From NCBI GenBank assembly GCA_029948255.1, contig JALIZF010001940.1, forward strand, positions 3,099,001-3,163,000: DNA of 64,000 bases, given 5' to 3'. A program made the position numbers and the translations under genes. A model generated the notes under the pieces. That model had not been told where the DNA came from and did not search any database. It saw only the letters and a list, made by a program, of their open reading frames with translations. Below, piece by piece: positions 1-6,699 of this stretch (positions are counted from its first letter, which is position 1; each line of letters opens with the position of its first letter). The DNA comes from Telmatactis stephensoni (Eukaryota; Cnidaria; Anthozoa; Actiniaria; Isophelliidae).

Positions 1-59
1 CCGAGTTTGAGTCCCCACTCTGGCCACTACCTGAGGCTGAATTTGTTCTGGGCAACCCC

Positions 60-135
60 TAGTTCAGATTCAGTTTCTTCAGACCATGCTTGTAATATAG
101 CCAACTGGTTCGCCTCCTTGCCAGTTGGGATTATG
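60..135. repeat. SINE-like repeat tail
   Basis: A short inverted repeat (101-108 with 121-128) sits in text that resembles the 3' part of dispersed tRNA-derived SINEs of anthozoans. It lies upstream of the first visible LIPT1 exon, so it is probably intronic. The assignment rests on remembered similarity only. Confidence 0.4.
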
Positions 136-313
136 AATTGAGGGCCATTATGTAAACTACCAGGTCACCAGTAATGTCTATACCCTCATTAAAATAAAGA
201 ATTTTTCTTTTCTTTTCTTTTATATTTAATTCATCAATGATAATGACATTTTCCAGGTAGCAACATTCTAAATTGGACAGATTTAGAGTTAAAATATTGT
301 TTTCTGTTTTTAG

Positions 314-2818
314 GTTGTTATTGGAAGGCATCAGGTAAAATGTTAATCCTTAGGGGCCGGGGGACCACTACAGGGTGCAGTGGTGGGTCCAGGGGGGTTG
401 AAGGGGTCCACGGAACCCCCTTGACGGCTTTAAGCCTTTTTTTGTCAAACATGGATCAAAGAATAGAGTATTGATACACAGCTGAGTTTAAGAGGAACCC
501 CCTGCTATGGGATGAGGATACTTATTGGAAATTTTGAAAATGACCCCTAAAAGGTACCTGAGTCTTATCTAGATGGGGATTAGCAGTAAACAGTTTTACC
601 TCTGAAAGGACACCCAAAAACAATGATTGAGTGAATCTTAAACTTGTAAATACCTTAATTAACTAGAGTTAGTGACAAAAGTCAGATGAATATGAAATCC
701 TGCACCCCCCAGACTCTTGGGTATTCAAGGAATTGATCAATGAGATTGACTCAAGTGTCTCATTGCTTCTGGGACAATAGCATAATAAATTAATGCAAGT
801 AATGAGCAGAGAACTTGTTTAGGGGTGTGTATGATATAATTTCCCTCTACTGTCCTGCAATTTTGAACCTTTTAGTAATAGCTGTAATGTTATCTAGTTT
901 TCATGAGCTATGTAAACAGAAGCAGAAGCATCATACACACTGACCTGGTATTGTATTTGTGGAGTCAGAGAAGACAATGAGCAGTGCATTACTGTGTTGC
1001 TGAGAGTCTGTATTTCTGAGAATGCTGCTTCCACTTCTGACTCTCATCAGTACATGCAAACTGCTAAGGCTCTTACTGACTCATGTAAACTCTGCTTCAC
1101 CACAGTGAGCTGATTGATAGTCCCATCCCTTATTCTTCAATATCTCAAAATCATTTTGCTTAAGCATAAATCTGATTGATGTGTTTTAGAATCCATGGCA
1201 CGAGTGCAATCTCAAGAAACTCAGAGAAAAAGACATCAAATTAGCAAGAAGGAAGAGTGGTGGTGGGACTGTTTATCATGTAAGAGAGGGTTTTATTTCT
1301 TTGTTATAAGAAACCATGGACATATACAGCACAGGGGAGGGGGGCAGGGGAGGGGAAGGGTAGCAGTCAACCCTCCCAACTAGCTATGGAAACTGATATA
1401 ATACTGCTTGCTATATATTACTTAGAAGAAATATAACTGACTGCCCCTGCAAACAATACATGTAACTGACTTTTGAGAAATGCTTCACTTAATTGCCCTA
1501 TCGCATAATGACGTCACAGTTTGTTTACATTGGGGATAGATGCTCAGAAACAGTGGAAATTGGGACCTATTAATATTCCTTCTCGAAGTAGAACTTCAAT
1601 GTATCGAGTTTTGTTATATATCATGTATCAGTGATTGCTCATCTGCATTATATTTGATATGCAATCACTCTGATGGAGCTTAGGAGGTCCACAAGTTTTT
1701 CAGTCCCTGACTGTAATGTGTTTTAACCTCATTAAATAAAGTTATTATTATTATTATTATTATTATCTGATCCCCTCTGGCAACCATAATCCTTAGCTTC
1801 AAAACAATATGTTTTGGTGTGACGTCATTATGTGATAGGGCAATTGCCACATACAAAAGTATCAAGATGAGGCTACGTGCATAGAGCTCATCAAGCGTAG
1901 CAATTAAGACAAAAGGTTTTAGCACCTACAGTCTTCATTGATAAAACTAGTTGGCACAATTGCTGTTTTATGTCATTTTTGTTTTTCCCTTCATTTTTTT
2001 CATTCCTCCACTCCCCCTGTTCAATGTTGCAGTGTCAAGGGAACAAGTGTGGCGTGCCCTTTTAGGAAAGCAAGGCCTGTGCAATGGTTGCCCTCTCAAC
2101 ATTCAACAGGGGGAGGGGGGGGGATAACATGAAGTGTGCATGGTAGTATTACGTTAGACCATCAGTGTGCACCAACTATGCCATCAGTTATTCTAAATCC
2201 ACTATTATTAATAGTGTATGTTTCAGGTTAAACAAATCTTGGAACTGGACTATTTGTAATATGTATGGGCCTGGAAACTATCAGACATCAACCATGGATG
2301 ACTAGTATAGATTTTTTTCTAATGAAGACTATGTTTGCTTTACAGGATCTAGGCAATCTGAACTTGAGTTTTTTTACACATCGGTCATTATACAATAGGC
2401 CTGAAAATCTAGCTCTTGTTGTTAAAGCACTAAAGGATAGATGGAAACTTGATGTGAAGGCCTCTCCTAGAGATGACATCCTGCTAGAAGATAAATACAA
2501 AATATCCTTGAATTATTTTCTTTGTGCATTTCTCCTTACCTTCCTTCCTTCCTTCATTCCTCCTTCCTTGCTTCTCTTCTCTCTTCTCTTCCTTCCTCTC
2601 TCCCTCCCTGCCTGCCTGCCTTCCTTCCTTCCTCCCTTCCCTCACTCCTTCCTCTCTTCTGTCCTTCCTTCCTCCCTCCCTTCCTTTCTTCTTTCTTTCC
2701 TATCTCCTTCCCTTCTTTTTTCCTTGTTTCTATTCAGTTATTCAGTTTACTTAGCCCCTAGGCTCTAATAATATTATTAAAGATTGTATTGTCAGTTAGC
2801 ATAGCAAACTTATTTACA

Positions 2819-2865
<47 letters not shown>

Positions 2866-5800
2866 TTAGCAATTTACTGTATTTTTTTCTTTTACAAAGA
2901 ACAATTCAATTCAATCTTTTGAAACTAAGCTTTTTCATCACAAACCCATCCAATGTGTCACGCCCTTAACAAATGTCATATATCTGGCACATCTTCCAAG
3001 CTAGGCAGAGTGATATCATATCACCACTGTACGTTATTACTGGATGCAGATGTGCAACTGTTACATGACGTTCTTAAACCAACTTATGTAAGACAGTAAG
3101 GATTAATTATTAATTAATAATAGATAAATAGATTCAGAGTTGATGGCTTGGTAATTTACCTTCCTGGCTTTAGGCTTTGCATTTGCATCACATAAAATAG
3201 ATTAGAATACATTAGAATAGGTACTAAAGAAGCCCACTGCCTCATGGGAATTTGAAAAACAAGATACCATTCATTTGTTCATTCATTCATCCATCCATCC
3301 ATTTATTTGTTCATTCATTCATTCATCCATTTATCCATCTATTTATTCATTTATTAATTCATTTGTTTACTCATTCGTTGTTTCTTTCATTCATTATTTC
3401 GTTCACTCATGAATCTATTCATTTATTTATGCATTTGTTCATTTATTCATTCATTTTTCACAGAACAAGATAACCAGTAATGCCACAACAAGTATAAGAG
3501 CTGTTGTCAAAAATCTCTGTAAAGTTGATTCTTCATTGGATTTTAACAATGTTGCTATGGCAATAGCAGAGGAATACAGTGCTACTTATTCAAGTGGTCA
3601 GCAGTTACAGTTGCAAATTGTCGACCCTGGTGATGAGAAACTGTTTCCTGGAATTTCAGAATTTGCCAGGGAATTACAAGTACGTTTTTAGATATTTATC
3701 TGGCTTATTTGTGTTGTTTTCCATTTCATTCTCTCATGCTTGCCTGTCTGTTTGTGTCTCTTTCACTTGTTTTTCTGTTCTCTCTTCATTTTCTCTCTTC
3801 CTTCCTTACTCCCTTTTTTCTTCATGACAGCTTCCTTTATTCCTTCCCTTTTTCCTTCCTTCCTTCTTTTGTTCCACCTTTCATTTATTCATTCCTTCAT
3901 CCATTCTTTTATGGTTGTCACAGGTCAGGGAAAAGTCAGGAAAAAGTTTTTTTCAAGGTCAGGGAAAAGTCAGGGAATTCTACTTTTAGTCAGGAAAAAA
4001 TTAGATTTTAAGAAAAAGTAAGGGAATTTTATTGTTCATACAGTATTTGAAAATGTATGGTCCCTCCTTGCTGGTTATCATGGTATGTGTGAAAAATGAA
4101 TGAATAAATGAACAAATGCATAAATAAGTGATAGATGAGTGAAAGAAACAATGAATGAAAGAAACAATGAATGAGTAAACAAATGACTGGAAATCCAAAG
4201 GTTGTGGGTTCAAACCACACTTAGGGCAGTGTTTCTGTATGGACCAGTCCGCTTGGGTTATCAGACAACATCTGTCCCACGCGCACTCAATATAAATAAC
4301 GAACTTCGACCTGCTCACTACTAGAGCCTTCTGATAGCTCAATGGTGGAGTGTCAGACTGGGAATCTGAAGGTTGTGGGTTCAAACCACGCTGAGGGCTT
4401 GGATTTTTTCTGAGTTAGAAATCCCACTCGAAGAAGCATTCATATCCAACCTACACATTTCCCAGTGACAATCCATTCATTAAATGAATAATTCATAATC
4501 ATTAATAATTGTTAATGAACGAATAAATAGTTAGATGAATAGGTGAATGGGAGAATGAATGAATGAACAAATGGATGAATGAATAAATAAATGAATGATA
4601 TCTTATTTTTCCCATTCCCATAAGGAAATGTGGTTCTTTAATACTTGTTTTAATGTATTATTATAATCTATTCATTTTTATCCAATGCAAATTCAAAGCC
4701 TAAAGCCAGGAAGGTAAAATTACCAAGTCATCAGCTCTGAATATATTAATCTATTATTAATTGATTAATCCTTGTCATTAGCCTCCTATGCAGCTGCTCC
4801 TTTGTGTCATCACGCAAGGCTTAGCTTCTTGGGGAGCTAAGCCTTGCGTGATGACACAAAGGAGCAGCTGCATAGGAGGCTACCTTGTCATCTGCTCAAT
4901 TTGCAAGCCATTGAGAAAAATCAAAAACATTGGAGTATATGAATTAGTGGGTCAGGGAAAGTATGCTTTAGTCAATTGAGATAATGTCACAGAAAAGTCA
5001 GGGAATTTTGTGATTGGATTGTTGTGGCAACCATACTTTTATTCATTCATTCATTTATTCACTCACTCACTCACTCATTCATTCATCCATTCTTCCTTTC
5101 TTTCTTTCATTTCTTTTTTTCTTTCATCCTATTTTTTATTCTTTCTTTTATCCTTCATCCTACTATTGCTAATACTTTTTTACTTGACTTATACTTTCAG
5201 TCCTGGCAATGGTTGTATGGCAAAACACCAAAGTGTAGCATTCCTTTCAAAACCAATCTTTCCTATGGCAATACAGTGAGTGTGCATTAATTTGTTTGCT
5301 TGTTTGTTTGTCTTTCTGTCTGTCTGTCTATCCATCCATCCATTTGTCCATTGGTCCGTCCGTCTATCTGTCTGTTTGTTTGTTCTTCTCCTTTGTGAAT
5401 TAAAATAAGGACAAAAAGTGCAGTTAATTTTGTATGATTAGCAATGGTGATTGCTGCTTTCCTATTCATAAAAAACTGCTCAAATCTCCACTGCATTCAC
5501 TCTTAAAATGAAGTGTGTGCTATCTTTCCAGTGTAAATTTTGTTGTTCTCTTCTTCTAGTCATTAACTTTCCAATGTTATCGTGGAATTATCCAAGAAAC
5601 ACAGATAGAAACAGACTCTGTGTACTTTAGTAAAATCTCAAGTACCATCAGCCACTCATTAAAAGGTAAACAGAACAAGAACCCTGTTTTGGGACTGTTT
5701 GTTGTCACACAGTCAACCTATCAATAATCATGGTTTTCTGTTGCTCAGGAGTAAGGTTTTGGCCAGAAGACATACACACAACACTAATTGATGTACAGAA

Positions 5801-5873
5801 GACAGTGAAATTATCCCAAGAGGAACAGCAATACCTTAAAGAAGTGATCAAATGGTTGAATAAAGTTTTATGA
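314..5873 (+). CDS. LIPT1: Lipoyltransferase 1, mitochondrial (3' part of gene, 8 exons)
   Basis: Transfers lipoyl groups to E2 subunits of mitochondrial 2-oxoacid dehydrogenases. Coding exons read from splice sites: 314-334, 1190-1279, 2346-2501, 2980-3087, 3464-3679, 5201-5275, 5560-5665 and 5749-5873 (TGA at 5871). Together they give 298 aa in one continuous frame. Family hallmarks appear in order: VVIGRHQNPW, the [15 protein letters not shown] ligase signature, [12 protein letters not shown] with the catalytic-site lysine, [21 protein letters not shown], and [13 protein letters not shown]. The human protein is about 373 aa, so the N-terminal roughly 70 residues (including any transit peptide) are encoded upstream of the window. 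All introns are phase 0 except the last (phase 1). The third visible intron (2502-2979) starts ATATCCTTG and ends in AT instead of GT-AG (see findings). A poly(A) signal AATAAA lies at 5888. Introns are full of microsatellites, and the gene is CpG-poor. Confidence 0.9.
490..640. repeat. Dispersed repeat with GGTACC core, copy 1
   Basis: Positions 527-566 are identical over 40 bases to 13920-13959. Degraded relatives lie near 28170-28240 and 36530-36960. It sits in a LIPT1 intron. No coding capacity is seen. Confidence 0.65.
1491..1845. mobile_element. MITE-like element with 27-bp terminal inverted repeats
   Basis: Arms 1491-1517 and 1819-1845 are reverse complements with one mismatch and contain TGACGTCA. 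The interior holds a (ATT)n tract at about 1741-1766. It has no ORF of note and lies in a LIPT1 intron. Confidence 0.6.
1847..1920. mobile_element. Partial foldback repeat, related to the element at 63.8 kb
   Basis: Starts GCCACATACAAAAG and contains a GAGGCTACG core followed by GACAAAAGG. The same blocks recur at 63796-63912, where they form a fuller foldback. This copy abuts the end of the 1491-1845 element. Confidence 0.5.
2530..2745. repeat. Polypyrimidine (CCTT/CCCT) tract in LIPT1 intron
   Basis: Degenerate CCTTCCTTCC and CCTCCCTCC strings. It lies inside the intron with U12-type signals, between its 5' site (2502) and branch-point-like sequence (2962). A purer (TTTC)n follows at 2820-2866. 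Translations of this tract are low-complexity Ser/Leu/Pro/Phe and are not genes. Confidence 0.85.
3262..3460. repeat. (ATTC)n / (ATTT)n degenerate microsatellite
   Basis: Tetranucleotide ATTC repeats with CATC and TTTA variants run up to the acceptor at 3463. The same type recurs at 4090-4190 and 4540-4600 (as ATGA), 5040-5090, 23880-25070, 26773-26905, 36080-36190 and 53970-54030. Confidence 0.85.
4195..4415 (+). mobile_element. tRNA-derived SINE pieces
   Basis: Two B-box-like segments, GGTTGTGGGTTCAAACC, lie at 4198-4216 and 4370-4388. The second has an A-box-like TGATAGCTCAATGGTGGAG upstream (4332). It continues into a tail with TTTTTTCTGAGTTAG. It sits in a LIPT1 intron and looks like a SINE with a truncated relative, not a tRNA gene. 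Confidence 0.6.
4779..4882. mobile_element. Perfect 48-bp inverted repeat with 8-nt loop (foldback MITE)
   Basis: Arms 4779-4826 and 4835-4882 are exact reverse complements around the loop TCTTGGGG. Ends start TAGCCTCC, and the arm contains TGTGTCATCACGCAA. Related pieces lie at 8021-8058 and 14591-14656. It is intronic in LIPT1. Confidence 0.8.
5300..5390. repeat. Degenerate TCTG/TCCA/TTTG tetranucleotide repeat
   Basis: Runs of TCTGTCTGTC, ATCCATCC and GTTTGTTTG lie just after the 5275 donor of LIPT1. No gene is seen here. Confidence 0.8.
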
Positions 5874-6699
5874 CAAGGTTTCTATTTAATAAAAGTCAAA
5901 ACAATGATACTAGTCTAGTATAATAGACTTATTTATCATTTTTCTGAAGTCTTTGATCTTTGTTTTTCTGGTCTTGATTTTTCCAACACCCCTATCAATA
6001 TATTGACCCTAAAAAACGAAAATGAGAGTGAGGGTCCTGAAGGGGTAATATGGGGGCTGGAATGCTGGGAAAATGGGATTTGATGCACTGGGGCTTGGAT
6101 TTGGCCACTGGAATGAGATTCCTTTTTTACAAGGAAAGCCAGAAAAAAAAAGAAACAAACAAACGAACAAAAAGCTATTAGATTATTTAAATATTTCTCA
6201 AAAAGTAGTTGAACACGTTTATATACACCAAAAGGATTCAATACTGAAGGTACATATAGGATTAATGAGTTTACAATTAGCAATTGAGGACCACCTTTTA
6301 ATACTTATAACTTTCAAATTGTGTCACTCTTGGGTCAAAAACAAATCAGCCCGTGATAAAAGTTTCCATAGATTCCTTTGGCCCTGAAAAACAAAATAAA
6401 ATTATTATTAGCATTTTCCACTTTTTTCAAGGCCAATAGGCCAAATGCTCATTTGCTGATAGCTCGTTTGAGGTCATAGTTACACATTTTTGGTTTTGTT
6501 TGTTTTTGTCTCTTTTTATTTTTTGTCCTTTTTTGTCTTTTCTTTTTTGTCTTTTTTTTTTTTTTTTTTTTTTTTTTGCAATGTTTTTGTTTGTTTGTTT
6601 GCTTGTTTTCATGTTTTTTTGGGGTTTCTGGTCATGCAGATTTGTATGTTATTCTCGGGTTACCTGTGGAATAGAGATAAAGCCACCCACTGGGAGACT

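What the first reader, a model, noticed from the sequence alone, without database searches (positions are those of the whole stretch)
2502..2979. Apparent U12-type intron with AT-AT ends in LIPT1
The exon ends at a Lys codon (2499-2501) and the intron starts ATATCCTTG, 8 of 9 to the U12 5' site consensus. Near its end GCCCTTAAC (2962-2970) matches the U12 branch-point element TTCCTTAAC at 7 of 9, about 10-12 nt before the next exon, with no polypyrimidine tract between. The exon resumes at 2980 with Ile-Ser-Gly-Thr, so the essential KISG motif is rebuilt exactly. Sliding the boundary within the shared ATATC never gives GT-AG or AT-AC. The 3' end is AT, a rare U12 subtype. It splits the catalytic lysine from its motif.
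Basis: partly seen in the sequence, partly recalled or inferred. Interest (0 to 1): 0.75.

Follow-up and report, generated by a model that had tools for sequence, protein, structure and literature searches.

The report
AT-AT minor intron in cnidarian LIPT1
A gene for a mitochondrial enzyme in a cnidarian genome is interrupted by a rare intron that the minor spliceosome most likely removes, with unusual AT...AT ends; that subtype is already known, but this genome's U6atac splicing RNA looks oddly altered at the very place that should read such introns.

Summary
LIPT1 has eight visible exons and seven introns between them; six are GT-AG, the one between Lys 2499-2501 and Ile 2980 is not. Of six possible registers only 2502-2979 scores as an intron: ATATCCTTG (8 of 9 to the U12 5' site), GCCCTTAAC (7 of 9) with its branch A 10 nt from the end, AT-AT, phase 0. 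A second haplotype has the same ends and 0 changes in 897 exon bases, so this is hardly an assembly error or a decaying gene. The genome holds U11, U12, U4atac, U6atac and a CENATAC-like family, and its PHB2 gene has a classical AT-AC minor intron with the same spacing. AT-AT is published as the second commonest non-canonical minor terminus in animals (PMC10639083): a new member of a known kind. No RNA evidence could be had. Followed outward, something odder: 4 of 4 U6atac copies found carry GCCGAGAGA instead of the AAGGAGAGA box that pairs with the 5' splice site; no copy with the usual box was found, yet U11 and the two minor 5' sites examined look normal.

The parts
2502..2979 (+). U12-type (minor) intron of LIPT1, AT-AT ends, phase 0, 478 bases
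   Evidence: register scores; reading frame; second haplotype
2502..2510 (+). U12 5' splice site ATATCCTTG, 8 of 9 to consensus
2962..2970 (+). branch-point element GCCCTTAAC, 7 of 9; branch A 2969; the other haplotype reads ACCCTTAAC
2978..2979 (+). 3' splice site AT, 10 nt after the branch A
   Evidence: identical in second haplotype
2346..2501 (+). LIPT1 exon ending at the Lys of KISG
   Evidence: homologs
2980..3087 (+). LIPT1 exon starting Ile-Ser-Gly-Thr
   Evidence: homologs
314..334 (+). LIPT1 21-base exon VVIGRHQ (first one identified; earlier exons were not found and presumably lie outside the window)
1190..1279 (+). LIPT1 exon
3464..3679 (+). LIPT1 exon
5201..5275 (+). LIPT1 exon
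5560..5665 (+). LIPT1 exon
5749..5873 (+). LIPT1 last exon with stop codon

Best explanation
Bases 2502-2979 are a minor (U12-type) spliceosomal intron of the A-type (AT-AN) subclass, with AT-AT ends. U11 pairs with ATATCCTT and U12 with CCTTAAC (letters shown; pairing computed, binding inferred). Between the branch element and 20 nt behind the branch A there is no AC or AG (the first AC ends at 21 nt and shifts the frame), so the AT at 10 nt is used as the 3' splice site (inferred). Removal joins Lys to Ile-Ser-Gly and restores LIPT1 exactly (shown at sequence level). Splicing in vivo is inferred, since no RNA could be examined.
For: Only one of six registers looks like any intron: 8 of 9, 7 of 9, 10-nt spacing. 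The other six introns between the eight visible exons are GT-AG and the frame is open to the stop codon. The predicted protein matches LIPT1 of Porites at 52% and Nematostella at 50%; K, S and G of the motif are nearly invariant in 13 aligned proteins. A haplotig (C622) repeats the gene: 0 of 897 exon bases differ while the two BLAST pieces over window 1-6500 show 42 and 38 mismatches; both intron ends are the same. Minor snRNAs: U12 (2 matches), U4atac (1), U6atac (4), U11 (1), each over the Rfam cut-off. CENATAC family PF14968, the published AT-AN factor: 6 matches, three on each of two contigs (PMC8280824, passages). Control: PHB2, whose AT-AC U12 intron is shared by fly and human (PMC2831892, table passage), has ATATCCTTT ... 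TTTCTTAAC ... AC at 10 nt in this genome.
Against: No cDNA or RNA-seq. The branch element mismatches at its first two positions, such a match is common by chance (4% of positions), and computed U12 pairing is weaker than for the consensus (-5.3 against -9.0 kcal/mol). Phase 0 is the least favoured phase of minor introns (around 22%, PMC10639083, passages). The orthologous position could not be read in any other genome; 4 of 6 cnidarian gene models named in the listed hits have KISG intact (P0001, P0002, P0007, P0008), which says nothing of the intron type. The genome's U6atac box mismatches this 5' site at two positions in the usual register.
Confidence: 0.9

Rival explanations
1. A 478-base insertion with a 5-base target duplication (ATATC at both ends) that broke LIPT1 and is not spliced.
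For: ATATC stands at both ends.
Against: The repeat is partly what Ile-Ser codons spell; the segment showed no dispersed full-length copy, only repeat-like and small partial matches besides the haplotig, in a search that skips very common words; both haplotypes hold it and keep 0 of 897 exon differences with a clean frame, unlike a dead gene; a duplication would not explain the CTT that completes the U12 5' site or the branch element.
Confidence: 0.03
2. A minor intron with the same 5' site but another 3' site: AC at 2969-2970 (adds Lys-Cys-His) or AG at 2999-3000 (drops ISGTSSK); both keep the frame. AC at 2989-2990 shifts it.
For: AT-AC and AT-AG are known A-type ends; both keep the frame (sequence).
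Against: The first lies inside the branch element, the second ends 31 nt behind the branch A; each destroys or splits the KISG motif, whose K, S and G are nearly invariant.
Confidence: 0.06
3. Assembly or sequencing artefact hiding a GT-AG intron.
For: Non-canonical ends are often annotation errors (general point made in PMC10639083, passage).
Against: Two separately assembled haplotypes agree at both ends and differ within the intron.
Confidence: 0.01

Closest known systems
A-type (AT-AN) minor introns, subclass AT-AT
   Same: 5' site ATATCCTT, branch element, short branch-to-end distance, AT-AT ends; published as second commonest non-canonical minor terminus in animals (PMC10639083) and named among the A-type introns affected by CENATAC depletion (PMC8280824).
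   Different: Host gene LIPT1: a search for 'minor intron', 'U12' and 'LIPT1' together found 0 papers in the open-licence library. Branch element weaker than the consensus.
PHB2 AT-AC minor intron of the same genome
   Same: A-type 5' site, branch A 10 nt from the end.
   Different: Ends AC, not AT; 5' site ATATCCTTT is 9 of 9 and the branch element TTTCTTAAC 8 of 9 (counted by eye).
U6atac (Rfam RF00619)
   Same: Four full-length matches of 90 to 103 bits; long computed pairing with this genome's U4atac.
   Different: Positions 12-14, AAG in the family consensus, read GCC in 4 of 4 copies, changing the 5'-splice-site box.

Membership tests
U12-type (minor) intron | 5' splice site RTATCCTT(T) | tested here: met
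   ATATCCTTG, 8 of 9
U12-type (minor) intron | branch element like TTCCTTRAC | tested here: inconclusive
   GCCCTTAAC 7 of 9, core CCTTAAC exact; such a match in range occurs at 4% of positions; computed U12 pairing -5.3 against -9.0 kcal/mol for the consensus
U12-type (minor) intron | branch to 3' end 10-20 nt, best 11-13 (PMC8199999, passage) | tested here: met
   10 nt, at the low edge; the PHB2 control is also 10 nt
U12-type (minor) intron | no polypyrimidine tract before the 3' end | tested here: met
   no pyrimidine run of 6 or more after 2936; the nearest are 2930-2936, 2915-2920 and 2882-2893
U12-type (minor) intron | host has U11, U12, U4atac, U6atac | tested here: met
   the U6atac box is unusual
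U12-type (minor) intron | same intron position kept in relatives | tested here: inconclusive
   only protein models could be seen; Oculina P0009 hints at it
U12-type (minor) intron | removed by the U12-dependent spliceosome in vivo | not testable with these tools
   no RNA data
A-type (AT-AN) subclass | starts AT, ends AN | tested here: met
   AT-AT, both haplotypes
Major (U2-type) intron | GT-AG or GC-AG ends in some register | tested here: not met
   0 of 6 registers
LIPT1 (lipoyl amidotransferase) | sequence kinship and KISG motif | tested here: met
   best named hits are LIPT1 or lipoyltransferase 1, apart from some unnamed products; motif

The most novel reading that the evidence does not exclude
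The minor spliceosome that removes this intron runs with a naturally rewritten U6atac: both U6atac loci carry GCCGAGAGA in place of AAGGAGAGA, while U11 and the minor-intron 5' sites stay canonical, so that the U6atac/5'-splice-site helix held to be essential is much weakened or re-formed in another register, and 5' site choice rests more on U11 and proteins.
Probability: 0.35. Interest if true: 0.8.

Novelty: new member of a known kind. Interest (0 to 1): 0.45.

Why it matters
The intron makes LIPT1 a candidate for the list of genes with AT-AT minor introns and shows how gene prediction that demands GT-AG can lose a nearly invariant motif (an Oculina gene model lacks just the 13 residues around it). 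The U6atac box, if confirmed as the only one in this animal, would question how much of the U6atac/5'-site helix the minor spliceosome needs; with human U6atac that pairing was shown by compensatory mutations (PMC4980772, passages).

Tried and rejected
Looked for intronless LIPT1 copies or dispersed copies of the insert: the DNA search with 2230-3460 gave 116 matches; only the window itself and the C622 haplotig span both exons, the others are short partial matches (a list of best candidates, a lower bound). A protein search for LIPT1 paralogs was planned and not run. The six RTATCCTT sites in the window were listed; apart from 2502 none was followed up. The first U6atac pattern had wrong spacing (5 N instead of 4) and found 0; corrected. 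A two-mismatch search for the usual box found one place, which does not look like U6atac in its surroundings; the reversed control pattern gave 4 and 4. The search for voltage-gated channel D1S1 introns, meant as a second control, did not complete. A protein search with a cnidarian alignment added one cnidarian-named model, Montipora foliosa X5 (skips a larger stretch, so uninformative).

Full report
What is there. A LIPT1 gene lies at the start of the window on the + strand. Eight exons were identified (314-334, 1190-1279, 2346-2501, 2980-3087, 3464-3679, 5201-5275, 5560-5665, 5749-5873), 897 bases with an open frame to the stop codon. Of the seven introns between them six are GT-AG; 2502-2979 is AT-AT. 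The genome is 483.5 Mb in 1782 contigs.

The intron. The exons share ATATC, so six registers exist. Only 2502-2979 resembles an intron: ATATCCTTG (8 of 9), GCCCTTAAC (7 of 9), branch A 10 nt from the last base, ends AT-AT; the other five match the 5' consensus at 2 or 3 of 9. A 5' match this good occurs at 44 of 127,760 positions of the window on both strands (the site itself included), a branch match this good in range at 5,120 of 127,760; the product is 1.4e-5 per site. The frame is restored as K-ISGT, whose K, S and G are nearly invariant over 13 LIPT1 proteins. Other 3' ends can be written: AC at 2969-2970 and AG at 2999-3000 keep the frame but break the motif, AC at 2989-2990 shifts the frame (read).

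Second haplotype. The DNA search found contig C622 with 93% identity over the whole query. Aligned, the two haplotypes agree at both intron ends, differ within the intron (substitutions, a 26-base gap, microsatellite length) and by one base in the branch element, G or A at its first place. None of 897 exon bases differs, against 42 and 38 mismatches in the two BLAST pieces that cover window 1-6500, exons included. This speaks for a gene under selection with a real intron and against an artefact or a dead gene.

The machinery. Rfam models above cut-off: U12 at C79 and C153, U4atac at C94, U6atac at C170, C53, C696 and C9, U11 at C104; alignments. CENATAC (PF14968) matches on C283 and C864, three each, probably two haplotypes; two of the six stretches hold a stop, as exon ends read through would. 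In each of these five family searches the tool's 14 control genomes gave 0. CENATAC promotes AT-AN introns in human cells, AT-AT named among them (PMC8280824, passages seen).

Positive control. PHB2 has a minor AT-AC intron in both fly and human (PMC2831892, table passage seen). Here the PHB2 gene on C118 has an exon ending before ATATCCTTTAAT, a TTTCTTAAC element and AC 10 nt behind its branch A, joining AAKL|LGEAL in frame; an AC inside the branch element would also keep the frame with three extra residues. So an A-type intron of the classical kind exists in this genome, with the same spacing as in LIPT1. That is one control; a second (calcium/sodium channel D1S1, PMC6259924, passages seen) could not be run.

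Comparative hints. Six models named as cnidarian turned up in the listed hits, which were capped at 120 of 1958 and 120 of 5376: Porites, Nematostella, Montipora capricornis and Orbicella have KISG; Oculina patagonica (P0009) lacks exactly 13 residues, from after DDIL to before LGQ, as if a predictor had used a GT and an AG in the flanking exons to step over a non-GT-AG intron; Montipora foliosa isoform X5 (P0121) skips a larger stretch. Of the 154 proteins held, these two alone lack K[ILVM][SA]G. This hints at an intron in the same place in Oculina but does not prove it; no cnidarian DNA other than this genome could be read.

What is known. A survey of over 3000 genomes gives non-canonical ends in about 3.8% of orthologous minor introns of animals, with AT-AA first and AT-AT second (PMC10639083, abstract start and passages seen). 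The subtype is thus known, and the finding is a new member. Library searches for minor intron + U12 + LIPT1 and for lipoyltransferase + intron + coral each found 0 papers; these cover only the open-licence library.

Unexpected: U6atac. All four U6atac copies found read GTGTTGTATGAGCCGAGAGAAGG where the Rfam consensus has GUGUUGUaUGAAAGGAGAGAAGG, that is GCC for AAG at positions 12-14. Their flanks fall into two pairs, as two loci in two haplotypes would. Upstream of all four lies a CCCACACGTG stretch; the C170 and C53 copies also have TATAAATA and the C696 copy TATAAGTA; a T run ends the gene. U4atac of the same genome pairs with U6atac over a long stretch by computation. So they look functional, save that the C9 copy has lost two bases in its 3' stem. 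An exact pattern with the four box bases left free found these four and no other; a two-mismatch search for the usual box found one unrelated place. [quoted passage not shown] Computed pairing of the variant box with the LIPT1 site is -3.9 kcal/mol, in a shifted register with a bulge, and with the consensus site -2.0, against -5.5 and -6.4 for the usual box; of four sites compared, ATATCGGCT pairs best with the variant (-10.4). U11 begins UAAAAGGGCC and U12 holds GAGUAAGGAAAA; in the pairing stretches both agree with the family consensus. U11 pairs with the LIPT1 site at -4.4 and the consensus site at -5.2, but also with the CGG site at -6.7, so energies alone do not separate them. Both minor 5' sites examined, LIPT1 and PHB2, are ATATCCTT. 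Either an ordinary U6atac is missing from the assembly, or this lineage tolerates a much changed helix. Searches for U6atac with Nematostella, with cnidarian and related words, with GAGAGAAGG, with anthozoa and with coral listed no paper whose title or abstract start reports such a box; passages were looked at in PMC11067881, PMC2846911 and PMC2831892, and none of these papers was read whole.

Verdict. By itself the intron is a modest addition to a known class. The U6atac box is the part a specialist would want checked first.

Noticed in passing
L022-L025 at 1501 (G000 C170:726686, C53:179840, C696:205179, C9:311061): All four U6atac copies found (two pairs by their flanks) have GCCGAGAGA instead of AAGGAGAGA in the 5'-splice-site box; no copy with the usual box found in the assembly.
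   Followed up: partly
L038 (G000 C118:328800-335200, minus strand): PHB2 has a classical AT-AC minor intron, ATATCCTTT to TTTCTTAAC and AC.
   Followed up: yes
P0009 (Oculina patagonica LIPT1 model): Lacks exactly 13 residues around KISG, as if a gene predictor stepped over a non-GT-AG intron at the same place.
   Followed up: partly
window 314-334: A 21-base exon of LIPT1 (VVIGRHQ); the Orbicella gene model P0008 goes wrong just there.
   Followed up: no
window 4779-4882: A perfect inverted repeat, two 48-base arms 8 bases apart, inside a LIPT1 intron.
   Followed up: partly
window 4326-4399: tRNA-like sequence inside a LIPT1 intron, called tRNA-Pro(ggg) by ARAGORN and 40.7 bits (4334-4392) by Rfam; whether it is a gene or part of a repeat was not tested.
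   Followed up: no
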